This document shows, one piece after another, positions 3,161-63,958 of a stretch of 64,000 nucleotides of DNA. Source of the stretch: Lotus japonicus (lineage: Eukaryota > Streptophyta > Magnoliopsida > Fabales > Fabaceae). The stretch is taken from the NCBI RefSeq assembly GCF_012489685.1, contig NC_080041.1, forward strand, positions 22,817,802 through 22,881,801, written 5' to 3'. Every line of letters begins with the position of its first letter. The stretch's first letter is position 1. Below the pieces are notes generated by a model. That model did not search any database, was not told where the DNA came from, and worked only from the letters and a program-made list of their open reading frames with translations. A program made the position numbers and the translations under genes.

Positions 3161-3694
3161 ACCTTAGGTCATCTTTCATGAAAAAGAGTATGGCACAATT
3201 CAAGCCAACCATGATGGACCAATTGCAATCTAAACATTGTCATTGCACCATGTCGTATGTTTTCATAGTCATTCGTTGCTTTTCTAGCAATAGTGGCTCC
3301 GCCGTCAGTGGTGGTGGTTAACCTAGCTAAAGGACTTATTTGAAATTTTAAAAATTTCTAACTAGTTAAAGTTACTAAATTACCCTGAACTTTTTTGGGT
3401 GTATACGATGCACCACTTTCCTTGTTGGCACACAATAGACTCGTCTAACTTACCCACTCAAAACTAACCATTAATCACAAGCTCTAAAGTAATTTACGAT
3501 AAAATCTCAGAATTGATATTTAAAAAAATTTAACATGTGGCGAAAAAAAAGTGTGTTGGTTAAGATTATAATTAGGATATTATGAGAAAAATCAATTCCA
3601 AAATTTGGAAATGGTTTTTCTCCAACTCACTATGTTTCATCAAGCTCCAATTGAATCTTGGCAAATATTTTAAAATTGAGAATCTATTAATCAA

Positions 3695-5088
3695 GGCTTA
3701 AATACTCTGGAGGTCCCTGGAATTGTATGGCGTACGAAAATAAGTCCCTAAATTTTTTTTCCCGATTCGGGATCCCTAAATTTTTTTTAATCTAAATAAG
3801 TCCCTACGGGTGTTTTCAGCCTATGTGTCACAAATTTTACCATGTCCACGTGGCTTTTTATGTATCCTAGTCATTTTCTTTAATTCCACAACTTATTAAA
3901 TACTCAAAAATAAAAATCCGAAAATAAAAAATTATTAAAAATATAAAAAAACCAGAACATTCTTCATCTTCTTCTAATATCTTCATCATCTTCAAACATC
4001 TTCATCATCATCTTCAACATAAAATCCAGAAAAATCCAAAAAATGAAAAACCAATCCCTTCAAACCCACTCAAACTTCAATCTCCTTTATCCCCACGACC
4101 TACATCATCTGCATCATTTTCATCCCCACCATAACCATCTTCATCCCCACCGTCCCTTAAAATAAAAAATCCAGAAGCTGAAATTCTCCTCTCTTCCATT
4201 CTCTATTCATCAACCTCTCTCCCTCGAACCCCTCTCCCATCCTTCCAAAGTAAATCCCTTTCTTTGCTCATTACAACATAGACTCTGAAAACCAGAGAAA
4301 GAGAGGAAGACAAGAACCAGATCTGCAAAGGGGAAGACAAACCCTCCAACCAGAAATCTGCAAGATGGGTGTGGGTTGGGGGAGCACTGCTGAAGCCGCC
4401 ACTACCACAGCCTCCTGGACCCCCAAACCCGTCACCGTCGCACACCACCACCGGACCCAAACTGTACCTACTTCCGGACCCGGATCCAAATCCAAATCCC
4501 CATCCCCTACCAGTTTCCCTGATCCTGAAACAGGATGATGGCTTCTCAGGCAACGCCGGAGGAGGAGGAGAAGGCGAAGGAAGGAGAAGGAGGGTTCGTG
4601 AACAGAGGCTAAGAAGAGAGACGAAAGCATGGTGGTTTGCATTTTCCGTCTGTGGATTTTGATGCAGAGGAAGTGTTCGTTCAGACTTGTCCATAGATCT
4701 TACGAAGCACCATGTGCCCAAAAAATTTCTGGATAAAGTTGCTTAGAGGACAGTGAAGCTCATCAGAATTCCAACATATGTGTTTTTTCATCTTAGGTAT
4801 AGGTTTGTTCTTGATTAATTTGTTAGGGATTAGGGATTATTAGATTTAGGGATTAATTTTAAGATTAAAATGTTTAATTAGTATTTATTAATACGTGTGT
4901 AATAAAAGAAAAATAAAAAAAGACACGTGAAATTGATGACTGTGCAAAAATAGAGTCACATAAGTACATAACACAAGTAGGGACTTATTTAGATTAAAAA
5001 AATCTAGGGATCTAGAATCGGAAAAACAAACTCCAATGACTTATTTTCGTACGTCATACAATTCCAGGACCTCCAGAGTATTTAAACC
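3695..5088. mobile_element. Non-autonomous Mutator-like element with 9-bp TSD
   Basis: Terminal inverted repeats of about 100 bp (3695-3800 and 4980-5088) begin GG(C/T)TTAAATACTCTGGAGG and continue with high identity through the GTACGAAAATAAGTC block. The exact 9-bp repeat ATTAATCAA flanks the element at 3686-3694 and 5089-5097, as expected for Mutator. There is no transposase. The interior (about 4080-4740) is far richer in GC than the surroundings and encodes proline-rich and serine-rich frames on both strands, which suggests captured host sequence, but I could not name the source. Confidence 0.85.
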
Positions 5089-5097
5089 ATTAATCAA

Positions 5098-10404: not shown

Positions 10405-11547
10405 ATGGTGGGTGAAGATTGTGGAACCTGGATGCCCCAGGTGCAATTTGATTTGCAATCATCCAATTTGAATTCATTTGGTGCTCCCCTTCATGTGGGG
10501 AAGCAAAATGCTACATATGCAGCTGTGAACCCGGGTGTGAATGTGGTCACAAGAAATGAGGGTGTGAATGTGGTCACAAGTAATGAGACGGTGTCACCCT
10601 CTGCACTACCTCCCTTGCAACTAGGAAGTGCTAATGAACCTCATGGTTGGTTTTATTGTTTGCCTCGCTTCCGACAGGGATTTACGCCTGCTCCGAGCTC
10701 CACTGCTGAGGTTAAACCCCCTGCTAGCCATGGGAAAAGTTTAAGGGATGAAAGTGTACCAAATAGGGATGAAAGTTTGCCTCAGAAGCGGTTCCTGGTC
10801 ATTGACCAAACAGGTGATCAAACAACTCTCATATACAGTTCCAGGTTTGGGAGTCCTGTTGAGTGCCTTGCTTCCTGGGACTCAAAACTGCATGGTCCCA
10901 ACAATTTGAATACGCACAATGAACCTCCTTTGAGAGGAGACGTGAATAATGTGGTTGGAGTTGGACCAGCTTTAGACGATAAAGTTGATGAAAATCAGGG
11001 AACTGACACTGAAAGCGAGATGCATGAAGATACAGAGGAGATAAATGCATTGCTTTACTCTGACAGTGATGGTTATTCATCTGAGGAGGATGAAGTTACT
11101 AGCACAGGGCATTCGCCTAGTACCATGACCACTCATGATAACCCGGCACCCTTGTTAGGAGCCGAGGAAGAAGTTGCCAGCTCTCGTGCTGGAGAAGCAA
11201 AGAAGCGGAAGCGAGCCGATGGGGATGCTTATGGTGATCATATGCAGTTCATGGACACTGCCAATTCTCTGAATCCGAACCGGCCCATCGACATTGAAGA
11301 TGATGATGCAGAATCAAGATGCTCTAGCGACAATTTCAGTCAAGGTGAAATGGGTTCCTTAACAGGCAATAAGAAGATGAGAAAGGAGAAGATACAAGAT
11401 GTTTTAAGCGTTTTGCAACACATTGTTCCTGGTGGGAAGGACAAGGACCCAATCCAGCTCCTTGATGAAGCCATACGTTGCTTGAAATCCTTGAAAGTCA
11501 AGGCTAGAGCACTTGGACTCGATGCCTTGCAAGATGGAGAATTCTAA
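10405..11547 (+). CDS. SAC51-like atypical bHLH transcription regulator
   Basis: This single-exon frame of 380 residues starts MVGEDCGTWMPQVQFDLQ, the typical N-terminus of the SAC51/bHLH143/bHLH145 group. An internal duplication, VNVVTRNEG then VNVVTSNE, lies near residues 48-62. An acidic middle (ESEMHEDTEEINALLYSDSD) is followed by a basic KKRKR nuclear-localisation-like cluster near residue 270. The C-terminal helix-loop-helix spans about 323-372 (KKMRKEKIQDVLSVLQHIVP, then LLDEAIRCLKSLK). The basic region lacks a normal E-box-reading His-Glu-Arg set, so it probably acts through protein partners. In Arabidopsis this family restrains xylem over-proliferation under thermospermine control. 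The upstream conserved ORF supports the assignment. Poly(A)-like AATAAA words occur near 11622 and 11837. The start is the first ATG of the frame and matches the family N-terminus. Confidence 0.93.
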   Translation: MVGEDCGTWMPQVQFDLQSSNLNSFGAPLHVGKQNATYAAVNPGVNVVTRNEGVNVVTSNETVSPSALPPLQLGSANEPHGWFYCLPRFRQGFTPAPSSTAEVKPPASHGKSLRDESVPNRDESLPQKRFLVIDQTGDQTTLIYSSRFGSPVECLASWDSKLHGPNNLNTHNEPPLRGDVNNVVGVGPALDDKVDENQGTDTESEMHEDTEEINALLYSDSDGYSSEEDEVTSTGHSPSTMTTHDNPAPLLGAEEEVASSRAGEAKKRKRADGDAYGDHMQFMDTANSLNPNRPIDIEDDDAESRCSSDNFSQGEMGSLTGNKKMRKEKIQDVLSVLQHIVPGGKDKDPIQLLDEAIRCLKSLKVKARALGLDALQDGEF

Positions 11548-39800: not shown

Positions 39801-41090
39801 TTTCTCATGAAGAGCTTGATCTCTTTTGGGAAGAGGAGAATGCAACAAAAGAAATGGAGGTGGTTAAAGAGATGAGGAAAGGTGGCGGTTGGAGTGGTGG
39901 TGGGGGTGGTTAATGAAGTATTTTAGGGGTTTCTCTTCTCTTTCACATCTTTTCTCTATATCTTCTCTCTAACTTACCTATTCAACAAAAAATGTAGCAA
40001 ATGAAGTGTCACTCTCCCAAAGGCTCCACGATCACCCTAACTCTCTCAACCCATGATGAACCCTTAACCACATCACCTGAACATGATTAAGTGGCCATGA
40101 ATAAAACTTAGTAAAATAATTAAGTATTAACCAAATCTCATCAGTCATCACTAACCACATGACACTTGGCTTCCTGTTGATGGAGCCACATGGCCACATG
40201 TTCCTGACCCCTAGTCAAATTTCAAAAAAATATCTCTAGATAGAGTGCCCCGAAATCGACTTGGTTACGACTCAAAAATTTTCACCGTTTTGATATTTTT
40301 TAATTTGATAAATGGATTCCTTACGAAATTTGAAAACATTTTGTGATTCTCATAACTTTACAAAAATTTCAGGATCATGACCGTTTGTCACCTCGAAGTT
40401 CTATACAAAACCATCGCGGTCTGTGAGGATTTTTTCTCTGGTCCGAAAGTAAAACAGTTTGATAGTACAATTAAAATTCACGAAATCAATCATACATCTT
40501 CATAAAGAGACCATGAGAAATTCATAATCCCATCATAATTAATTTGGTGACTAATTTGGTGTTTATATAGCAAGGGGTCGTTTTTCGAACGTTTTGAAAC
40601 GTAACCAAAATCGTAGGGAATGTTCCGAAATTCATCACTCAAATTATAATTGCATTGAAAACGAGACATGAAATTATTTTATATTAATCACACACTTTCT
40701 TACAAACATATTTAAGTTGACACGAACTTAAGACGTAAAGTATCCCATCAAAAAAAAAAAGACGTAAAGTAAAAAATTAAATTAAACTGTGAATTTATTC
40801 TCTGAAACTCTTAGTCTTACAAATACATAGCAATACAATACAATATAAAAAATGTAATATTTTTATTGATGGATATGTTTGAGTTCAAAAAAAAATTGTT
40901 ACATGGAAGGGTTTGGCGTGATATAATATAATAATATAATGTAAGGTATTCTAATATAATATAAAAATATAATCTACTTTTTACCATCAATAATTACTTA
41001 ATAAAAAATTATAATAATAAAAATATCTATAAGAATCATTTAGTGATGAAATTATGTATTTAATGTAAAAGTTTTAAACATATACATTTA
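36011..41090. other. AT-rich spacer with non-coding retroelement-like sequence
   Basis: An (AT)n run lies at 36808-36841. A TGTAACACCTCAAC word at 36469 resembles the start of some plant gypsy LTRs. At 37400-38000 the minus strand has moderately protein-like broken frames (TLVYHIDPHVFVKEMV in one frame and IDAHEILMKCTAYHMTLSW in another), probably from a retroelement I cannot name. The GAC- and CGA-rich block at 40240-40640 also looks LTR-derived. I found no host gene. Confidence 0.35.
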
Positions 41091-52656: not shown

Positions 52657-52665
52657 TTCAATCTT
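52657..52665. repeat. Left 9-bp target-site duplication of the large MULE
   Basis: TTCAATCTT, identical to 63950-63958. Confidence 0.92.
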
Positions 52666-53568
52666 GGTCCCTTCTGTGGTGCCTCCTCCCAGGCGCAGGT
52701 ATGGTGCCTCTGCCTATTTGGACCAGTAAGAATGTGGCATGTATTAAATGAGTTGACTTTTCTTTTTTTCTGAAATGAATTAAAATAATAGGAAATGATT
52801 TTCAGAAAATATGGTTTTATAAAAATAAAATATTTATTAATTTGCTAACAGGTCCCTCAGTTAATTAATTACCACAGTAAAAGTAATACCCTCATTTGAA
52901 TTGATATGACTATTGATGTTCCCTCTGTTTTGATAACTGATACACTTCCTAAAGCAGAACATTCCAGAGAAAGAGAAGTGTGAGAGACTGAGTGACGGAG
53001 ACGATGAGAGTGATCGACGGTGGAACGGCGGTGGAACGCGACGACGAGGACCGACGGTGGAACGCGACGACGTGAGAGAAGAAGGCGCCAGCGATCTTCG
53101 CGATTTCAACATCACGGTATGTTCTTCATCTTTTCTTTTCGTAGTTTTGATCTTCAAGTATTCTCTTCTGGGAGTTAGATCTTAATGAAAGAATGGTTTT
53201 TTTTCTCAGGGTTTGTGTTCTGATATCGTTCTCATATCTTTGTCTGAGTTAAAGTTTTGATGTTTTGATGTTTTGATGTCTACGGTTATTTTTCATAACT
53301 TGTAATTACAATGATTCCAAATAGGCTCTAGATTTGAAAATCAACCTTGTATATCACATGCATGTCATTCCCCTTTCTTTGTCTGCATTAAAGGTTTGAT
53401 TTTTATGTTATTTATGGTTTGTAGATTTGTTATGGAACCTTGTTTATCACATGAGTGTTCTTTTTTTGGTGGGATTGAACCATATTTTTATGTTGATATT
53501 GAATTTTAAACGTCTGTGTTCACATTCTTAATCTGTGCTTTGAACTGATTATTTGTGTTTTTGAAGAG

Positions 53569-54818
53569 ATGAGTCATACAAGTGCTTATGGCCCTTACAC
53601 ACCTGGTTTCAATAATGTGATAAAGTTAAACCTGGTAATTTTTAGCTCCTTCCATTTGTGTTGGTATAGTTATATGGTTTAAACATCAATTTTAATAAGT
53701 TTTATTGGAAAAACATTAGGATGACGTGGAAGTTCCATTAGAGTTTATTGCACAATACAAATCTATGCTGGGAAATCATGTTGTTGTTAGGGATCCTGTA
53801 GGGGGGGAGTTCACCTTTCAGTTGGTTGTTGGTAATAATGGAGGTTTGCTCATTGATGTTGTGGACAAGTTTGTAAAAAGGTATGATTTGAAACGAAATC
53901 ATTGGGTAGATTTCTCCTATTGTGGAAAGAACAAGTTTTCTATCAGGATATTTGATAGAATGATGAATCAAATAAGCTATGGTGCTGGCCCTTCTGTAAG
54001 GCAACCTGATGTTGGGAGTTCAGGTAAGAATGGTGAAGAGGTGGTTGTTTCTGATGTTGGTGATAAGGATGAAGTTGGTGGGGAAGTTGTAGTGGCTGAT
54101 GTCGGTGGTAAGGTTGAAGTTGGTGGGGAAGTTGCAGTTCCAGTGGCTGATATTGGTGATAAGGATGAAGATGGTGTGGAAGTTCCAGTTCCAGTGGCTG
54201 ATGTTGGTGGGGAGATTCCAGTAGCTGATGTTGGTGGGCAGTTTATGGATGTGGATAACATTGAAGAGAATGATGTAATTATGATATCAAGTGATGATGA
54301 GGAGGATGATGGAATCGTGCAATTAAGTGATGAGGAGGAGGATGATGGAATTATGCAATTGAGTGATGGTGAGGAGGATGATGGTGTGGAGAGGGTTATT
54401 CATAATTTTGATAAGGTCATTAGCAGCTCTGATTCTGGTGGAGGCCAGACAATGGTAAGTACTTGTTTTTAAATTGTAGTGCTACTTGTTTTTAAAATTT
54501 CATTTGCTGTATGTGATATCTTACAATCTAATACAATGTTTATTTTTTTATTTTCAGGCATTGCCTAAGTTGTATGTGGTGAATCATATTAGGGCAAACT
54601 GGGAGAATATCGTTCTACAAACCCCTAGGGGTAGAACTTATAGTTGTCTGCTGAAAAGAAGGAATCCAAGGAAGATTGATACTCCAATCCACATTGCAAA
54701 GGATTGGTATCAATATGTGAAGGATCATGAGTTGAAGTATAGGGATGTTGTGCACTTTAGGCCAGTTAGCACTCACAACAATTTGGTTAATGTTACCATT
54801 ACCCGTGGGCAGCCGTAG
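53569..54818 (+). CDS. Two-domain B3-like DNA-binding protein of the MULE
   Basis: Exons 53569-53634, 53720-54454 and 54558-54818 join in phase 0 at GT-AG introns to give 353 residues. Residues about 24-110 form a first B3-like fold: VPLEFIAQYKSMLGNHVVVR, a strand-rich core, then HWVDFSYCGKNKFSIRIFD. Residues about 120-190 are degenerate (V)ADVGG(E/K/D)-type repeats, followed by three acidic QLSDEEEDDG-like units. The last 85 residues are a clearer B3 domain: NIVLQTPRGRTYSCLL, IHIAKDWYQYVKDHELKYRD, VVHFRPV, NLVNVTI. Two B3 domains split by an acidic linker recall plant REM-type proteins. It presumably binds DNA in the nucleus. A possible untranslated first exon ends at about 53117 before GTATGT. 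No lesions were found. The start ATG at 53569 gives an unbroken frame across all junctions. Confidence 0.78.
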
Positions 54819-55048
54819 TGAGTTTGATGTTTTGTTGATTTCCTATTAATGTTTTCAGTTTGGACCTTGTATGTTTTGCCTTTGTTTTGTGCAACTTTTG
54901 GACTGGCTTGATGCCCCTGGCTTGTTAGACCTTTTTGGATATGTTTTGTGCAACTTGGTGTTTTATGGATCTTAGTTAATCAATGACTTTATATGTTATT
55001 AAGGTTTCAATTATTTACTTATTAGTATATTTATGTAGTGTATAATAT

Positions 55049-55551
55049 ATGGCATCTCAATCATTCTCTTCGACACAAAGAAGAAATGGGATTGCTGATG
55101 GAAGGCTTTGTACTTGCGGCCTTACCCCAGCCCTAAAGACTTCATGGTCTAGTAGTAATTATGGACGAAGATATTTTCAATGTCCTTTGAAGGTAAATAG
55201 GGAGTTTTTGTTATGTATTCAGTTGACAACAAGGAATTTATAACTTATGAACTTAAATATACGCAGGCTTGTGGGTATTATGATTGGCTTGATCCCCCTG
55301 TGCATGGGCAAGTTGTTGAAGCCCCCATGACTGCTGCTGTGACTCCTGGTAAAGTTGTTCAAGCCCCCATGACTGCTGCTGTGACTCCTGGTCAAGTTGA
55401 TGATTGCTTTGAAGGATTAAAGAGGGCAGAAGCTTTGATCTCTGACTACAAGAGAAGGGAACAAATGTATTTCATCGTTGTTGTTGTCTCTTTGGTAGTT
55501 GTTGTGCTACTTATTTTGTTTAAGTGGTTTACACAAGCTTTGGATATGTAA
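55049..55551 (+). CDS. GRF-type zinc-finger protein with C-terminal membrane segment
   Basis: Joining 55049-55192 to 55267-55551 (phase-0 GT-AG intron) gives 142 residues. The finger spans about residues 21-60: CTCG, then TSWSSSNYGRRYFQCP, then across the junction ACGYYDWLDP. This matches the GRF zinc finger (CxCG...TxxNxGRxFxxCP...CxxFxWxD). Next come two direct repeats APMTAAVTPG(K/Q)V, a charged coiled segment (FEGLKRAEALISDYKRREQ) and one strongly hydrophobic helix (MYFIVVVVSLVVVVLLILF) near the C-terminus, so it is probably tail-anchored. GRF fingers bind single-stranded nucleic acid in larger proteins. Small plant GRF proteins with a membrane tail are common, with no known role. The gene lies about 230 bases after the B3 gene in the same direction. 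No breaks were found. Confidence 0.82.
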
Positions 55552-56281
55552 AACCTTTTATGAGAAGTGGTCACATGTATGTGTACTCTTTTTGAATTAT
55601 TAACTCTTTTATGAGAAGTGCTCACATGAGTCCTCTTTTTAAAATATTAACTTATCTAAATTTACATTTTTTAGTCTACATAGTAATTTAATTAAACTGT
55701 GTAAGTAGATGATGAGAAACCTCCAAAAATGACTATGATAAAACTATGACAAAAGAGCATACAAAAGAACCAAGAACATTTGCTATATTAAGTGAAAACT
55801 GGTCCAAATAAAATAGTGAGTAAATAGTGCTCTTGTCAAACTTGACTATGATTTACTATGACAAAAGATGTTACTATCGCTATGAAACATGTTTTCAACT
55901 GTTTTTAAGTGAAAATGGGTCCAAATAAGGTTGCTCTTGTCTAAGTTAGGTTGATCTTTCTATTGCTATGAATCATGTTTCTATTTTCAATAGAAAATGG
56001 TCCAAATATAATACTAAGTTGCGCACTTGTGTTCTTGTTTAAGCTATAACTATTATTGCATTTGAAGAAAACATGATCTAATAAACATGATATAAGACAA
56101 CCAACGCATAAAAATTTATAAAAGCAAAATTTGGCAACTAGTGCCTTAACCTGATCAACAAAATTTGGCAACAACAAGTGCCCTGAAAAAGGATTCAATG
56201 CGTCCACGCTTGCGCATACACAAAGATAAATCACGGAATAAAAAACATAGATTGTGTCTAACAATAACCAAGATTACAAAA
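55552..56281. other. Convergent 3' intergenic region within the MULE
   Basis: The plus-strand GRF gene and the minus-strand protease gene end toward each other across 730 bases of AT-rich sequence. Short duplicated words occur (TTTTATGAGAAGTG(G/C)TCACATG twice near 55557 and 55607, and TGGTCCAAATA-type words three or more times). No gene was seen. Confidence 0.5.
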
Positions 56282-58637
56282 TCAGCAAGTTTTTGGCACC
56301 CCTTTCTTCTTGTTTCCAGCTTCTGATATCCTGTTGTTGTACACCAATGATTTTGATAGCATAACTCCTTGAAGCAAATTATGTGAATGGAGAACAAGGT
56401 CCACAGCAAGTTTCAATCTTGTGAAGTTATCAACCTCTATCTTGTATCCATTTATCCCCATCTGGTTCATCCAAGTTGCAACAAAAACTCCACAGTCGTT
56501 TCTACATGACAGTAAACAATTTTCAATCAGTAAGTTAGATGGTTTCAAAAGTATAAAAGAATTAAATTGTTATATGTAACTTACGAATCTTTCTTTTGAA
56601 CCATAAGCCCTTCTGGGATAACCATTTTGAATTCAGACACAATAGGCTTAGGGCTATCATCGATGAGATAAAATGACTGGTCTTGCAGAAGTTCTTCCAA
56701 ATAAATACACTACGAGCAACAAGTTTTCTGTTAGTAACAAAATTAATAACACAAATCATGGAATTCAAAAAGTAAATTAATTATAAGGTTATACCAGTAG
56801 TTTGGTACGCCTAATTCTGGCAAGCATCCTGCCTTCTTTCGGATAGCTGTCAAGATACACTACTTGCTCATTCTTAAAGTCCAGGACTATAAGGTACCAG
56901 TGCTTATTGTCGTCGTTAACAGGAACAAATATCTGGCAGAAAGCAACCATGTAGATAAAGCTCAAACAAGCTACATTTTGAATGAAATAATATGTTACAC
57001 AATTATTGAGTTACCTTTTCAAGAAGGTCTACTTTCCCCATGAAATTTGCCTTAATTAAAATCTTCATAGAATTAGGGTTTGTAGTCCATGACAATATAG
57101 CTTGCTACAGTGGAAAAGAACAACTTCAGTGAACTTTATATTTCATTTTAATTAAACAGAACTTGCCATTAAGAATGAGCAGATGATATTACCGAAACAT
57201 TTGTTGGGAAAAACCATATGGGTGGATTTTGATTAAAAGACCTCTCCTTCTTGGTCAACAAGCAAGCGAGCAAATTAAGCAAATCCGTCACCAACTCTCC
57301 TTTTGGTTTCAGGCACTGCAACACACCACGGGTTCCATCCGAGAAAGGGATTTCAGGCTTCACCAAGGCCTCTTTCCTGCAATGAACATAACATGCATAT
57401 TAAATTAGCTCTTCTACTGAGTATCAAAAAATAATTTAACTACGTAAATAAAAACTCAAACATTTTACCAAGCCATGTCCTCTTTATTGGCCTTCTTAAA
57501 GATATAAGATGCCACAGCCGTCTCAGCATAAGATAGTTGGAATGTGTTCTCATTCTTGAATATCTTGTTCAGGAACTACAAGATACACATGTATGACAGT
57601 CAATTTAACAAGTAAAGTTCTTAATTAATGGGTCAAAATTTTGAAAAAACATAACTTACCGGTGGAACATAATGAGGGGTAACTAATTTCAGGTTTTTGG
57701 GGGATTGAAAGTCAGCATTGGTAATTTGGTTTCCTGGATTTGTGTCCTGTGACGTAACAGGTGGGCTGAAAAGCTTCCTAACAAGTGAACTGTGATTTTC
57801 TGTAGATGTTGGTGCGATCTCAACGGTTTCAGTTTGGATTTCAGTATTTGGTGTTGGTAGGTCAGCAATAGGTGTTGGGAGTTCAACCGTTGGTACAACA
57901 AACTTTTGCATGATTTTCTCTATCGCTTTAGGTATTGGTTCAACTGATGAAGATGGATCTAACTGTGCTCCTTTTGTGGGAAGAATCTGGACACATTTGG
58001 ACTTTATCATTGTCTGTGTCAACCACCCAATACTCGCCATAATAGCTTCCATGTTTGCCTCCAACGTATTAAATTTCTCTTCATTAACCACTCCCTGCAT
58101 TGTAAAATATAAAAAAAAAAAAAAATTAAACCTTGGCTATAGGTTTCACAGCTGTAATTTAAGCAGGGATTCAAGGGTTTCCTAATTTGAATCCATTATA
58201 TCAAGTTTAATTTGGCATACTACTATGGTAAGCAAGGGAATAAGATACGGAAAATTCAACTGAAGCAATTTAAGCGATTTAAGTGAAAAGTAATTCATTT
58301 TACTTCAAAACATACCTTTTTTTTCTTGTCATCTTCTTGTTGATCACCATAATATGGAAGATTCATGTTCAGCTGCAGCCCAGAATCTTGATTACTGCAA
58401 ATAAGATATGAATGTCAAAAACCTACGAAACCTAATAAATAAACACGACAGAACAGAAACATAGTTTTAGATGAGTAACACTGATTACCTCGAAGATATG
58501 AGTACCAAAGAAGGGTTAGCGTTCTGATTTGGAACGGTGAAATCCAAGCCCGACGAATTGACGGAGATGCAATCCACTTCTCGACGATTTCGCTTCCGGT
58601 GGCTTCGTCGAACAACTAGGGCTCCTTTCGTTTTCAT
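56282..58637 (-). CDS. Ulp1-type (C48) cysteine protease of the MULE, nine exons
   Basis: Exons on the minus strand are 58637-58489, 58394-58316, 58094-57660, 57575-57469, 57376-57193, 57104-57015, 56932-56795, 56709-56585 and 56501-56282. All have GT-AG borders and join without a frame break to give 508 residues. The N-terminus is basic (KTKGALVVRRSHRKRNRRE, likely nuclear) and is followed by a Pro/Thr-rich region. The C-terminal protease domain shows the His of DDNKHWYLIV, the Asp of YLDSYP and the Cys of NDCGVFVATWM, the triad of SUMO/ubiquitin-like proteases. The oxyanion Gln, normally six residues before Cys, reads Lys here (VQKKDSNDCG), with a Gln one position earlier, so activity is uncertain. 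Ulp1-like genes are known passengers of plant MULEs. A TATAAAA lies on the minus strand at about 58725-58719. ATG 58637 was preferred over 58707 because the latter frame stops before joining exon 2. Confidence 0.88.
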
Positions 58638-59069
58638 GGTAGACATCAATCAGATGATTTTGGACCGTAAATCTTCCACTGCTTGTTAGACTCTGAATCC
58701 CATTCATAATTGAAGCAATTTTATAGTACTAGGGGGAATTGATTGAAACCCTAAACCCCTTTACGAGTTTTGAGGCTGGAAGCTCAAACAACAAAGCTGC
58801 AATCAATTTTCCTCATTACTCCCCCTCTCATAACCCTATCAAGCATGCGGCCTCTCCATATTCCAATTTTGGAGCCACCTAAAGTGCTTAACTTCACCAT
58901 CTCCTCACCTTCCATTTTCGAAGCTTTATGGCACCATGGTTAGGAAGTTAAATGTTTTTTAATTTTTTATATTTAACTTATTTTAGAAATAATATTTATA
59001 AATAGGTATAAAAATTATTTATTAACATTATTTATTAATAAATACTATATAAATAATATTTAATGGTAC

Positions 59070-59765
59070 AACCTTAAGTTTGACTTAATATGGAGAGCGG
59101 CGGAGCAATAAGAGTCTTGGCAAAGCTTAGGACAGATAAAGACCTAATATGAAGCTTTGGTCTTACTTAAGCTTTAAGTATGACCTAATATGGAGAGCGG
59201 CGGAGCAATAAGAGTCTCGGCAAAGCTTAGGACGGATAAAGACCTAATATGAAGCTTCGGTCTTACTTAAGCTTTAAGTTTGACCTAATATGGAGAGCGG
59301 CGGAGCAATAAGAGTCTCGGCAAAGCTTAGGACGGATAAAGACCTAATATGAAGCTTCGGTCTTACTTAAGCTTTAAGTTTGACCTAATATGGAGAGCGG
59401 CGGAGCAATAAGAGTCTCGGCAAAGCTTAGGACGGATAAAGACCTAATATGAAGCTTCGGTCTTACTTAAGCTTTAAGTATGACCTAATATGGAGAGCGG
59501 CGGAGCAATAAGAGTCTCGGCAAAGCTTAGGACGGATAAAGACCTAATATGAAGCTTCGGTCTTACTTAAGCTTTAAGTATGACCTAATATGGAGAGCGG
59601 CGGAGCAATAAGAGTCTCGGCAAAGGTTAGGACGGATAAAGACCTAATATGAAGCTTCGGTCTTACTTAAGCTTTAAGTTTGACCTAATATGGAGAGCGG
59701 CGGAGCAATAAGAGTCTCGGCAAAGCTTAGGACGGATAAAGACCTAATATGAAGCTTCGCACGAG
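59070..59765. repeat. Seven-copy 100-bp tandem array
   Basis: TGGAGAGCGGCGGAGCAATA recurs at 59091, 59191, 59291, 59391, 59491, 59591 and 59691, exactly 100 bases apart and nearly identical. Copy 1 is the most divergent, and only a few positions vary among the rest (such as AAGTA/AAGTT). Each unit contains AAGCTTCGGTCTTACTTAAG, with facing AAGCTT/CTTAAG words. It is GC-richer than its surroundings and lies between the protease promoter and the transposase 3' end. Confidence 0.95.
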
Positions 59766-59849
59766 CTTAAGTTTAAGTTTATTAATCTTAACTCAATTAA
59801 ATACTCGCATTAACTAAATTAAATATTTATGTTTACAGTTTCATATCAA

Positions 59850-60095
59850 TAATTACTTCTAGCTTAGTGGTTTGTAGCATTCTATATTTCCCACATGTCC
59901 TAGGTTCGAATACTCCTATAATCAGTTTTTAATTATTTTTTTATTTGGTTATCCACTCAATAGCAACCAAACCGCATTAACCGTATTAAATATACTATTT
60001 AACTGTTTCTTACTAATAATGAGTGGTATCCCAGTGGTAAATATCCTCCTGTTGGTTCTACATGTCCCTGGTTCAAATCTCATGTTCTTCTTTTT
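59850..60095 (+). repeat. Two tRNA-like (SINE-type) A/B-box segments
   Basis: TAGCTTAGTGG (59860-59870) is followed about 32 bases later by GGTTCGAATACTC (59903-59915). A second set, ATCCCAGTGG (60028-60037) and GGTTCAAATCTC (60070-60081), lies downstream. The boxes and spacing resemble internal pol III promoters of tRNA-derived SINEs. No full tRNA cloverleaf can be drawn, so these are not tRNA genes. Confidence 0.4.
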
Positions 60096-60470
60096 TTAAC
60101 CCATTTTGTACAGATTATTGCAAACAAACTATAACATTGGTCTTTTTTATACAAGTACTGGATTGCATAAATATGGCACAAAGATGGTACCTGAAATATT
60201 TTAAACTAAGCATTGTCCAAATATGAAAGAACTCAAAAACTATGAATTAATAATTCGGCAATAAAATTCATTGGTCCAACATTCAATCATAATAAGTTCA
60301 AGACTTCATAAACAAAAAATACTTCAAAATCAGCCAGGACTTCAATAACATAGCCATATTAGTTCCCAGCAAAAATTACATGAAAAAAAACAGGTCCATT
60401 AATGGTTTAAGCAACACAATGCAATAGCAATTCCAAGCAAAATTCAGAGCCACATCCAATATTCAGTCTT

Positions 60471-63169
60471 TTACTGAGTGCCATAAGGCGATTGCTGGTA
60501 TGAAGCAAAAGGATGGAAAGATTGTAAAATCTGGCTCGCAGGGAATTGGGGAAACAAATTGAACCCACTAGGGAAACTCATTGGAGGGGCTTCAATATCA
60601 GGTTGAGGTTGCTCAATAGTTGGTGACACCATAGCTTGGGAACTTCCAGTGTTGCGTTTAACATCCTTTTGGGTTCTTCTATCTCCCACCTAAAATTCAC
60701 AGCCAAATATAAACCACCATAAACAACAATTTTACAACAGAACATGCCACTCAAATTTATACAACATAGTAAATATGACATATAACATGCCTTTCTTTTG
60801 GCTTTGATTGTACTCATTGAACTGGGCCCTCCATTATCTCCTCCTAATGATGGCACAGGCTGTATACAATTTAAAATATTAATGTCATACACATGGTAAT
60901 TGGCTGCAAAATAATCCAATCCAAAAATTATACAAACAACTTACAGTATCAGCAGTGTTATCACCATCAATTTCAACAGATGAATCTTCATCTTCTTCAG
61001 CATCTGCAAAACTTTCTCCAACTTCATTACCCTCAAATAATGTAGGACATGTCCTGATTGTGTGGCCACCCTTTCTGCAATTAGAGCATAGCCTTTTCGT
61101 CTTCTTATACTTCTTCTTCTTCTGTGGAGCGCCCTTGTTTTGACAACAGCTGGGTCACCAATGACAAATAAATTGGTTGCAGCAGAATTGGGATGACGAC
61201 ATTTCTGAAATTTCATGACAAGCTTGTATATGTCCTCCATAACATTTGAGAAATCAGAAGAGTCATCAGCACCATATTCACTCAGAAAGTTGCATGCAGC
61301 AGAAATTGCACCTCTACGCAACATTTTCATTCTATCAGTATCAACCTCCATAGCAGGGATAGATTGTAATGAATCAGCCTTTGCAGTCTTCAGCCACCTT
61401 TTAGAAACAAGACTAGCAGGGAATTCATTCATGTTCTCAGTTCTCATAGCACATATAATGTGAGAACAAGGTATGCCAACATATTCAGAAAACCCACAAT
61501 CACAATCAAACATGTTCTGATTCTTGTCATAAATGACCAAGAACTGAGTGTTTGGATGACGACAAATGCTAAACTTTATCATCACTGTGGTACCAATCTC
61601 TGATCGTTCAACAAGATTAAGGTTAAGTGCTCGTTGAATCATATGTCTCACTTCCCTAAACATATTCAATGTCAACAACTTTGCTGCTCCTTGTTCAATG
61701 TGACTCAAAGCAGTAATCAAGACAGGCTCACCATAACTTGACTTGAAATCAGAGGCTAACTCATTATGCCTATACTCCTCCACAGCTCTCTCAAAGTTAT
61801 AAATGAAATCAAGGATGCTATTTTTGCACTGCACATAGGGAGGTAGTCCTGATACCGGCAAAAAATTTCTCTCGCATAAACGCAGTTGCCCACATCTGCC
61901 TAGTTTCATACGTCTGTTTAATCCATTTTTCCTCACCAATACCATACTTTTCAATCACTTGTAGCCATTTAGTTTCAAAACGTTCTGGAGTGAAATTCCC
62001 ATAAATCAAAGTCTTAAATTCATTCAAGAAATCTGGAATCTTAATTTTCGCAAGACAGTTTTGCTGAATATGCCATCCACAAAGCCTATGAGTAGCATTA
62101 GGAAACACAACCTTTACTACTTCACGCATAGATTTGTCTCCATCAGTCACAACAGCTTTGGGTTGCTTTCCAAACATAGCTTCATCCAAGGCTTTCAGGA
62201 CCCATTTGTAAGTCTCAATGGTCTCATCACAAACCAAGGCACATGCAAAAATTGTAGTCTCCTTGTGATGATTGTAGCCAGAAAAGATAAAAACCGGTTT
62301 GTTGTACTTGTTCTTCTTGTAGGTGCTGTCAAAAACAATGACATCTCCAAACGCTTGGTAATCAAGGCGACTTGTTCCATCGCACCAAAACAAGTTTTCA
62401 AGATTTTCTTCACCTGATCTTGTGAATTTGAAAAAAACATGGGATCCTTCTCCCCCTTACGCTGCAAATAACTCAATGCACTGGCTGCATCTCCAGCACC
62501 TAAACTTATCCTTTTCTTCTTATCAACATGATTATATAAGTCCTTTTTCAAAAAGCCCACCGATTCATGCCCACCTTTCTGACCCATCAAAAGCCCCATT
62601 ATGTTGCAACTTCTCACCCCATACAGCTTTAGACTGTCTACTTGAGCCTTGTCACCATCAGTCAATCCCCTGAATGAGGGCATTAAATGAACGTGGGATG
62701 CAGGTGTCAACCCATGATTGTGTTCTAGTTCAAATAGCACAACCTTCCACTTGCTTGAGTCTGCATGAAAACGGACACGAAACTTTGCTGGGCAAGCAAC
62801 TCTGGTAATAGGCTTTGCTTCTTTGACTCGGCTAACCTTATTCAAATGCTTCTCATGTCTCTCACCTTCCCTATTACACACCAGTTGACGACTAATAATA
62901 TTACCCTTTCGATCACGACGGACATCATCTTTCCTTGCACCAAAACCTTTGAAATGGGCATAGTGTTGGTAAAATTCAACAGCATCCTTCTCAGAACAAA
63001 ACACCAGCTCCCTTATCTCATCAGCTGTCAAGTCAGGGATTAATTTGCAACGATCTGGATTAGAATTCTCATTATTGCCATCATCAGCCACAGCCTCAGA
63101 ATCATCATCCTCACTCATACCTCCATCATTAGACAAGTCAATAGAGAAATATTCATTCACATCTGCCAT
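60471..63169 (-). pseudogene. FAR1/MULE-family transposase with three frame lesions
   Basis: From ATG 63169 the product has in order: an acidic N-terminus; a FAR1-type zinc DNA-binding domain (ELVFCSEKDAVEFYQHYA to LFELEHNHGL); a MULE transposase core (VIVFDSTYKKNKYNKP, VVTDGDKSMREVV, THRLCGWH); a SWIM finger (CDCGFSEYVGIPCSH); and a CCHC knuckle (CSNCRKGGHTIRTC). The last coding parts are exons ending at 60945, 60859-60791 and 60689-60471, with a GC-AG donor after 60791. The frame shifts at the A run 62431-62437 (one base short), near 61831-61837 (a small deletion between TTSLC and YVQCKN) and near 61134 (one base short). MULE transposases cut at the terminal inverted repeats, and host FHY3/FAR1 regulators descend from them. 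The broken copy should be inactive unless the lesions are sequence errors. Confidence 0.88.
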
Positions 63170-63528
63170 GGCAGCAAACCTATGCAACGAAACCAATAAA
63201 TAAGTACAACACAAAGATTTTAAGTAAACAAAACCTGATTTTCGAAAACAACGAAATCAATTTTGTAAACCTTAAACGAAAAAAATTTCATTCCGATTTT
63301 TTAAACCCTAAACCCACCGATTCAAAAGCTTAAACCCAAAAGCACAATACCCAAAATGCGATTTAAACCCTAAACCCAGATTCAAAACCCACAAATATAA
63401 GAACCCCTGAATTTGAAATCAAACAACAGCAACGAATAATAGATGGGGATCCCTAATAGATTAGGAAAATGCGATTTTAGAACCAAAACAGACTAAACCC
63501 AGATTCAGAAACGGACTGTGCTATTTGA

Positions 63529-63655
63529 TGAAGAAGCTGGAACGTGAAGAAGCTCGAACGACAATGAAGAAGCTGGAACGTGAAGAAGCTGATGACGACA
63601 ATGGTCCTCGTGTGCGAAAAACGAACAATGAAGAAGCTGGAAGGTGAAAAAGCTG
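63529..63655. repeat. Degenerate 24-27-bp repeats near the right end
   Basis: GAAGAAGCTGGAACGTGAAG and close variants occur about four times upstream of the transposase start, in its probable 5' leader. Confidence 0.6.
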
Positions 63656-63949
63656 ATACTATTTAGGGTTCAAGGAAGAAGAAGAAGAAAATGGGTTGAA
63701 CTCAGAATACGAATAAGCTTGGTAAAAATTCTCAATGATGGTTAAAAGATAATATACAACTTTCAAACAATTGCTAAAAGGCCCCTCTGAAAATAAAATA
63801 TAAAACATTTTTGATTTTCTAAAAAACAATTCAAATTTGAACAGAAAAAAGAAAATTTGAAAATACTAATACACATGACAGCATATTATTTGCTAAAAGG
63901 GTTGGAGGCACCACACCCTTAAAAATAGGGGGGCACCACAGAATTTACC

Positions 63950-63958
63950 TTCAATCTT
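63950..63958. repeat. Right 9-bp target-site duplication of the large MULE
   Basis: TTCAATCTT, identical to 52657-52665. It follows the terminal ACC of the right inverted repeat. Confidence 0.92.

What the first reader, a model, noticed from the sequence alone, without database searches (positions are those of the whole stretch)
52666..63949. Complete 11.3-kb MULE carrying B3, GRF-finger, Ulp1 and FAR1-type transposase genes
Matching inverted termini and an exact 9-bp duplication (TTCAATCTT) enclose four multi-exon genes plus a tandem array. Ulp1-like passengers are known in some plant MULEs. A DNA-binding B3 protein, a nucleic-acid finger with a membrane tail and a de-SUMOylase-like protease travelling together with the transposase look like an accessory module that could manage host silencing or DNA access. 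The functional idea is inference; the element boundaries are seen directly.
Basis: partly seen in the sequence, partly recalled or inferred. Interest (0 to 1): 0.92.

Follow-up and report, generated by a model that had tools for sequence, protein, structure and literature searches.

The report
Four-gene jumping element in Lotus
A large cut-and-paste transposon of the legume Lotus carries, besides its own transposase, a DNA-binding protein gene, a small zinc-finger membrane protein gene and a protease-like gene; copies of two diverged families keep these genes in the same order, which suggests a built-in toolkit rather than random hitchhikers.

Summary
Window 52666-63949 is one Mutator-like transposon: 21-bp imperfect inverted ends, exact 9-bp duplication TTCAATCTT, four genes (B3, GRF-finger, Ulp1-like, FAR1/MULE transposase) and seven 100-bp tandem units. 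The transposase of this copy is broken by three frame changes; the other three genes are open. The host matches Lotus japonicus. Ten other copies read in full carry the same genes and array (one with part of B3 deleted); 10 of 11 (window included) have exact, all-different 9-bp duplications, the eleventh ends in N. A second family (Ulp1 DNA about 69% identical; two copies read) carries the same four genes in the same order, with similar ends and its own duplications. Between families dN/dS is 0.17 (transposase), 0.25-0.26 (Ulp1), 0.33 (B3), 0.45-0.46 (GRF). The module is therefore best read as an old, selected part of the element. The array slot is kept while its sequence changes, as reported for VANC anti-silencing targets; that function is inference. 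Family 2 has Ser for the Ulp1 catalytic Cys in 4 of 4 copies covering it, which argues against de-SUMOylation as the shared function. Ulp1 in Jittery-like MULEs was known; B3 and GRF partners were not found in the papers searched.

The parts
52657..52665 (.). target-site duplication, left copy (TTCAATCTT)
52666..52686 (+). left terminal inverted repeat, 17/21 to the right end; GGTGCC at offsets 12 and 37 from the end
52666..53568 (+). left non-coding end / presumed promoter and 5'UTR of the B3 gene; CpG o/e 0.9
   Evidence: promoter role inferred
53569..54818 (+). B3 gene: exons 53569-53634, 53720-54454, 54558-54818; 353 aa, two B3 domains joined by an acidic repeat linker
   Evidence: PF02362, E 5e-16, two stretches
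55049..55551 (+). GRF-finger gene: exons 55049-55192, 55267-55551; 142 aa, zinc ribbon then C-terminal hydrophobic (membrane) tail
   Evidence: PF06839, E 3e-7; KD19 3.33 at residue 115
56282..58637 (-). Ulp1/C48-like gene: 9 exons, 508 aa; H359, D376, C439 present
   Evidence: (PF02902, E 4e-12); triad assignment by alignment to yeast Ulp1 and recall
59074..59780 (+). tandem array, 7 units of 100 bp, each with two copies of GACCTAATATG(A/G)AG (first unit has one base changed in one of them)
60471..63169 (-). FAR1 + MULE + SWIM (+ CCHC-like, below cut-off) transposase gene, frame broken at three places in this copy; 3' part with two introns read by eye, the second with a GC donor
63170..63949 (-). 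right non-coding end / presumed promoter and 5'UTR of the transposase; CpG o/e 0.81
   Evidence: promoter role inferred
63929..63949 (-). right terminal inverted repeat
63950..63958 (.). target-site duplication, right copy (TTCAATCTT)

Best explanation
It is one copy of a recently amplified Jittery-type (FAR1-domain) Mutator-like DNA transposon family of Lotus. The lineage carries a standing accessory module: a B3-acidic linker-B3 protein, a GRF zinc-ribbon protein with a membrane tail, and an Ulp1-like protein, in a fixed order with the transposase. Shown: boundaries, past mobility, module retention in copies of two families, dN/dS well below 1 for all four genes between families. Inferred: the transposase of open copies acts on the ends (GGTGCC motifs) and moves broken and short copies in trans. 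Inferred, most likely function (about 0.35): the module is an anti-silencing or regulatory system that works like VANDAL VANC. The B3 protein would bind the element's own non-coding array or ends; the Ulp1-like protein would act through the SUMO or ubiquitin-like system, as binder or protease; the GRF protein would be the membrane-linked partner.
For: Exact, all-different 9-bp duplications in 10 of 11 copies read in full, the 11th ending in N. Same genes and array in all 11. Nine copies differ by a mean of 0.1-0.9% by region, so the burst is recent. One open transposase frame of 773-777 codons in 4 of 11. Second family: same genes, order, orientation and end type, exact 9-bp duplications in 2 of 2. 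dN/dS between families 0.17 transposase, 0.25-0.26 Ulp1, 0.33 B3, 0.45-0.46 GRF. Between the two sublineages of family 1 the three passengers show 10 synonymous: 10 replacement fixed codon differences against 14:44 among the nine copies (Fisher p 0.03; transposase 6:3 against 11:36, p 0.017). Array in 11 of 11 copies with 3-17 units; its majority unit differs between sublineages by 5-6 of 100 bases; in family 2 the same slot holds unrelated repeats. VANC target regions are reported as fast-changing tandem repeats (PMC5735166, PMC10398659, passages).
Against: No functional data of any kind. No DUF1985 or other VANC-type domain in the Ulp1-like protein at E up to 1. Counts of recent CpG decay do not show protection of the non-coding 5' parts: 5/234, 3/189 and 6/162 CpG cells decayed there against 0/88, 3/198 and 5/306 in gene bodies. 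None of the 11 copies read has all four genes open. Taken alone, B3 (p 0.34) and Ulp1 (p 0.29) are not significant in the fixed-difference test, and window against c01 gives 1 synonymous to 6 replacement changes in B3 (dN/dS 1.62). Array change could be ordinary minisatellite drift. The B3 fold was not confirmed: both models were poor. The copies read in full were the ten best-scoring left ends after the window, which favours similar, full-length ones. Family 2 rests on two copies read in full, one of which (f1) lacks the Ulp1 start and the array slot.
Confidence: 0.8

Rival explanations
1. Pack-MULE-like transduplication: the element picked up three host genes that ride along without helping it.
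For: MULEs often capture genes, and Ulp1 capture is reported as repeated and perhaps independent in grapevine (PMC2528002 section 10). Passenger frames are broken in several copies: complete B3 in 7 of 11, Ulp1 in 6 of 11.
Against: Same four genes, order and orientation in copies of two families; dN/dS 0.25-0.46 for the passengers between families; whole multi-exon genes rather than fragments; replacement-poor fixed differences for the pooled passengers.
Confidence: 0.1
2. The accessory proteins are transposition helpers (end binding, complex assembly, localisation), like MURB of MuDR, and have nothing to do with silencing.
For: mudrB is needed for MuDR insertion (as stated in PMC9168764 section 23). 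Genes kept with the transposase. GGTGCC motifs at the ends: both in 12 of 12 left ends, the outer in 6 of 10 and the inner in 10 of 10 right ends of family 1, and similar ones in family 2 and short relatives.
Against: Does not explain the kept slot of changing tandem arrays or the Ulp1-like protein.
Confidence: 0.3
3. True VANDAL/KI-MULE relative: the Ulp1-like gene is a VANC/KIU orthologue that lost DUF1985.
For: Ulp1 gene in a MULE with short degenerate ends and motif arrays; Ulp1-bearing VANCs are described in a review (PMC13317346, passages).
Against: FAR1-type transposase, the Jittery feature (PMC6446971 table passage; PMC9569675 passage). Ulp1 lies on the same strand as the transposase, whereas in KI-MULEs it is reversed (PMC2528002). 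No DUF1985 hit.
Confidence: 0.1

Closest known systems
Jittery-like MULEs (maize Jittery; melon and grapevine Jittery-like families with ULP sequences)
   Same: FAR1 domain at the N end, MULE and SWIM domains; ULP sequence downstream of the transposase in some grapevine Jittery-like families and ULP in melon Jittery-like MULEs (PMC2528002 section 10; JITA FAR1 domain: PMC9569675 passage)
   Different: The Jittery dicot/monocot subgroup is listed with one ORF (PMC6446971 table passage); here three accessory genes including B3 and GRF, an 11-kb element and a tandem array
VANDAL / VANC anti-silencing system of Arabidopsis
   Same: multi-gene MULE with degenerate ends, an accessory DNA-binding or Ulp1-bearing protein, and fast-changing non-coding tandem arrays (PMC5735166, PMC10398659, PMC13317346 passages)
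   Different: FAR1-type transposase, no DUF1985 hit, B3 domains and GRF protein not mentioned for VANDAL in the passages seen; anti-silencing untested here
KAONASHI / KI-MULE
   Same: MULE with an Ulp1 gene
   Different: Ulp1 opposite to the transposase in KI-MULE (PMC2528002), same strand here
Abermu family (barley Hvu_Abermu)
   Same: large autonomous-looking MULE with extra ORFs, Ka/Ks below 1 (PMC9168764 abstract and sections 16 and 23)
   Different: closer to MuDR; no B3/GRF/Ulp1 domain is named for its extra ORFs in the parts read
Sesbania bispinosa Ulp1 protein P0003
   Same: 33% identity over nearly the whole length including the N-terminal part; Cys kept
   Different: genomic context unknown; the model lacks the His-bearing stretch, possibly an annotation fault

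Membership tests
Mutator-like elements (MULE) | MULE transposase domain | tested here: met
   PF10551 E 1e-27 in the window piece, 3e-27 in an open copy
Mutator-like elements (MULE) | 9-bp target-site duplication and inverted ends | tested here: met
   10 of 11 copies exact, 1 undeterminable (N); ends 17/21 in the window
Jittery-like subgroup | FAR1 domain N-terminal, SWIM or CCHC C-terminal | tested here: met
   PF03101 E 4e-21; SWIM E 3e-4, at or just above its cut-off; CCHC below cut-off
Jittery-like subgroup | placement with Jittery in a transposase tree | not tested
   no Jittery sequence was fetched
VANDAL with VANC | VANC protein with DUF1985-type domain | tested here: not met
   no such hit at E up to 1 in the B3, GRF and Ulp1-like proteins; that VANCs bear DUF1985 is partly recall
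VANDAL with VANC | non-coding tandem arrays of a family-specific motif | tested here: met
   11 of 11 copies with the 100-bp array; other repeats in the same slot of family 2 copy f2. Binding unknown
VANDAL with VANC | protein removes methylation from its own family | not testable with these tools
   no methylome or expression data
KI-MULE | Ulp1 gene reversed to the transposase | tested here: not met
   both on the minus strand here; orientation rule from PMC2528002
Pack-MULE | carries host gene fragments, usually small and non-autonomous | tested here: not met
   transposase present in 11 of 11, one open frame in 4 of 11; passengers are whole genes
Active C48 (Ulp1) protease | His-Asp-Cys triad | tested here: inconclusive
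   family 1: H359 D376 C439 in the window, NDC string kept in 10 of 11 copies; family 2: Ser for Cys in 4 of 4 copies covering the site, a fifth does not cover it

The most novel reading that the evidence does not exclude
A second, independently assembled anti-silencing system of plant transposons: a transposon-owned B3 protein recognises a family-specific tandem array in the element, with an Ulp1-fold protein that need not be a protease (Cys to Ser in family 2) and a membrane-linked GRF protein, together keeping the element open. Array and B3 protein co-evolve, so each family opens only itself.
Probability: 0.25. Interest if true: 0.88.

Novelty: new variant of a known kind. Interest (0 to 1): 0.7.

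Why it matters
Anti-silencing by plant transposons is known from VANDAL elements. Here a different MULE branch keeps its own set of accessory genes over long divergence, with a tandem array whose place is kept and whose sequence changes. That makes convergence testable in a model legume with recent copies, and it asks what an Ulp1-fold protein without its cysteine does for a transposon. Copies of the B3 gene stand in databases as uncharacterized Lotus proteins, so annotation should mark them as transposon genes.

Tried and rejected
Structure prediction of the two B3 exon pieces from single sequences gave mean pLDDT 59 and 41; no fold search was made. A PDB search with the B3 protein gave six hits at E 0.46-0.81, chance level; one is a B3 chain, NGA1, at E 0.72. 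The idea that CpG-rich non-coding parts show lasting protection from methylation (array o/e 1.10, reached by 12 of 1039 windows outside the element; B3-GRF, Ulp1 and transposase bodies 0.18-0.38) was not upheld for the 5' parts by counts of recent decay. It stays open for the array (9 of 480 CpG cells changed to TG or CA, by my count's table, against 163 of 4320 other C/G cells), where homogenisation explains it too. SINE-like boxes near 59860 and 60030 were seen by eye; ARAGORN found no tRNA at 58700-60500 and Rfam no match at its gathering scores in the window. Protein searches found B3 relatives only as P0001 and P0002 (P0002 has no named source) and one Ulp1 relative, in Sesbania; the search is word-based and limited. 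Not held and not read: Sasaki 2022 and Holligan 2006 on Lotus elements; either may describe this family. B3 or GRF in MULEs was looked for only (listings seen; two searches returned none, the six hold no 'B3 domain', the two were not opened).

Full report
Boundaries. The 9-base word TTCAATCTT flanks 52666-63949 exactly. The ends match at 17 of 21 bases; of 17,670 control pairs of exact 9-base repeats in the window only one other does as well, a second element at 3686-5097. Each end also carries a second GGTGCC motif about 25 bases further in. The left end is followed by the B3 and GRF genes on the + strand; the Ulp1-like and transposase genes lie on the - strand with the array between them.

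Genes. B3: 353 aa, PF02362 E 5e-16 in two stretches (each stretch scanned alone is below the curated cut-off), joined by an acidic, repeat-rich linker. GRF: 142 aa, PF06839 E 3e-7, hydrophobic tail. Ulp1-like: 508 aa, PF02902 E 4e-12, nine exons with GT-AG introns; similarity to yeast Ulp1 E 1e-4. Transposase: FAR1 E 4e-21, MULE E 1e-27, SWIM E 3e-4 in separate pieces, with three frame changes. Its region is 2699 bases against 2732 in copies such as c05, and it lacks the stretch with CEG, which from recall holds the catalytic Glu.

Host and copy number. The B3 protein is 97% identical, over 78% of its length, to uncharacterized Lotus japonicus proteins (P0001, a cluster of 44 members). The window lies in a 553.7-Mb genome on contig C1. 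The left 435 bases gave 43 matches, with 40 of 109 candidates scored. An Ulp1 segment gave 29 matches, all 29 candidates scored: 21 at 98-100% over its whole length (window included), one at 85%, two fragments near each other at C1:118.95 Mb, five at 68-69%. Reading the two lists side by side, 19 of the 21 lie within 18 kb of a listed left end; the other two (C3:82.01 and C3:87.49 Mb) have none listed.

Copies. I read the window and the ten next best left ends in full, plus one copy (c11) that matches only the left end and part of B3. The 11 full ones all have the four genes and the array; in c04 414 bp of the B3 gene are missing. Ten have exact 9-bp duplications, all different and AT-rich; the eleventh (c03) runs into N at its right end. 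Several carry large extra insertions. Complete frames: B3 7 of 11 (c01 is open but without the stop), Ulp1 6 of 11, GRF 10 of 11 open to 120-142 aa, transposase one long frame in 4 of 11. Of those four, one (c05) keeps all three motif strings checked, FDSTY, VVTDGD and CEG; c07 lacks FDSTY, c04 and c08 lack the exact VVTDGD. No copy read has all four genes open. Nine copies differ from each other by a mean of 0.1-0.9% by region; the window and c01 are further off.

Short relatives. Of seven weaker left-end matches fetched, five (L033, L034, L035, L036, L039) are short elements of 1.2-1.6 kb with both ends; four of them (not L036) have exact 9-bp duplications. L037 and L038 showed no right end in the stretch read. 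They look like non-autonomous relatives of this and related families.

Second family. Two of the five 69% loci were read in full. Both have B3 (50-59% aa by stretch), GRF (47-73%), Ulp1 (30-54% by stretch, introns included in the alignments) and transposase (75%) in the same order and orientation, ends GGTGCCTGCTGTGGTG(C/T)CTCC and GGTGAATTCTGTGGTGCC, and exact duplications TTGTTTATA and ATTGCATAT. Copy f1 lacks the Ulp1 start and the array slot and has one stop in its transposase; f2 has an open transposase over the matched 755 codons but two stops inside Ulp1 exons. dN/dS against family 1: transposase 0.17, Ulp1 0.25-0.26, B3 0.33, GRF 0.45-0.46, with dS 0.6-1.1.

Selection inside family 1. 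Fixed codon differences between the two sublineages against differences among the nine copies: passengers 10 synonymous and 10 replacement against 14 and 44 (p 0.03); transposase 6 and 3 against 11 and 36 (p 0.017). Singly, GRF reaches p 0.048 on tiny counts; B3 (0.34) and Ulp1 (0.29) do not. Pairwise dN/dS of the window against the nine copies is 0.52 B3, 0.18 GRF, 0.47 Ulp1, 0.25 transposase; window against c01 is 1.62, 0.60, 0.51 and 0.55 on few changes. The pattern fits genes that serve the element and decay after insertion.

Array. Units of 100 bp, 3-17 per copy, in 11 of 11. Majority units of the nine copies differ from the window's at 5 (eight copies) or 6 (c08) of 100 positions and that of c01 at 2, against 1.4-2.3% (nine copies) and 1.2-1.3% (c01) substitution elsewhere. 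In f2 the same interval holds a 216-bp repeat and nine near-copies of a 17-base word found nowhere else in that 15.5-kb stretch; the family 1 motif is absent. This resembles what is described for VANC targets (passages in PMC5735166 and PMC10398659), but no binding is shown.

CpG. The array (o/e 1.10) and the non-coding 5' parts (0.74-0.90) keep CpG while B3-GRF, Ulp1 and transposase bodies do not (0.18-0.38). Recent changes among the nine copies do not show the 5' parts as protected, so I draw nothing from it.

Ulp1 nucleophile. Family 1 keeps the NDC string in 10 of 11 copies and Sesbania P0003 keeps it. Family 2 has NDSGV in 4 of 4 copies covering the site, three of them without exonic stops in the covered part. 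The four may descend from one recent source, so this may be one event. It still suggests that cleavage by Cys was not needed for amplification of that family.

Known and new. MULE membership is met. FAR1, MULE and SWIM domains place it with Jittery-like elements by domain content; no tree was made. Ulp1 in Jittery-like MULEs is in print (PMC2528002 section 10). A B3 plus GRF module in a MULE was not found; the Lotus element survey of 2006 and the 2022 VANC paper could not be read.

Noticed in passing
window 3686-5097: A separate 1.4-kb element with long inverted ends (20/21 in the first bases, similar over more than 100 bp by eye) and exact 9-bp duplication ATTAATCAA, probably another non-autonomous MULE.
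   Followed up: partly
window 59860-59920 and 60028-60095: Two stretches that look like tRNA-type A and B boxes (SINE-like), seen by eye; ARAGORN and Rfam gathering thresholds gave nothing.
   Followed up: partly
L040-L045 (family 2): Ser in place of the Ulp1 catalytic Cys in 4 of 4 copies covering the site.
   Followed up: partly
L033, L034, L035, L036, L039: Short elements of 1.2-1.6 kb sharing the ends; four of five have exact 9-bp duplications.
   Followed up: partly
window 40101-41000: AT-rich stretch with the highest CpG o/e of the window outside the element (up to 1.5 in 707-base windows), unexplained.
   Followed up: no
window 10405-11544: Host gene for a SAC51-type bHLH protein (PF23173 E 7e-9).
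   Followed up: no
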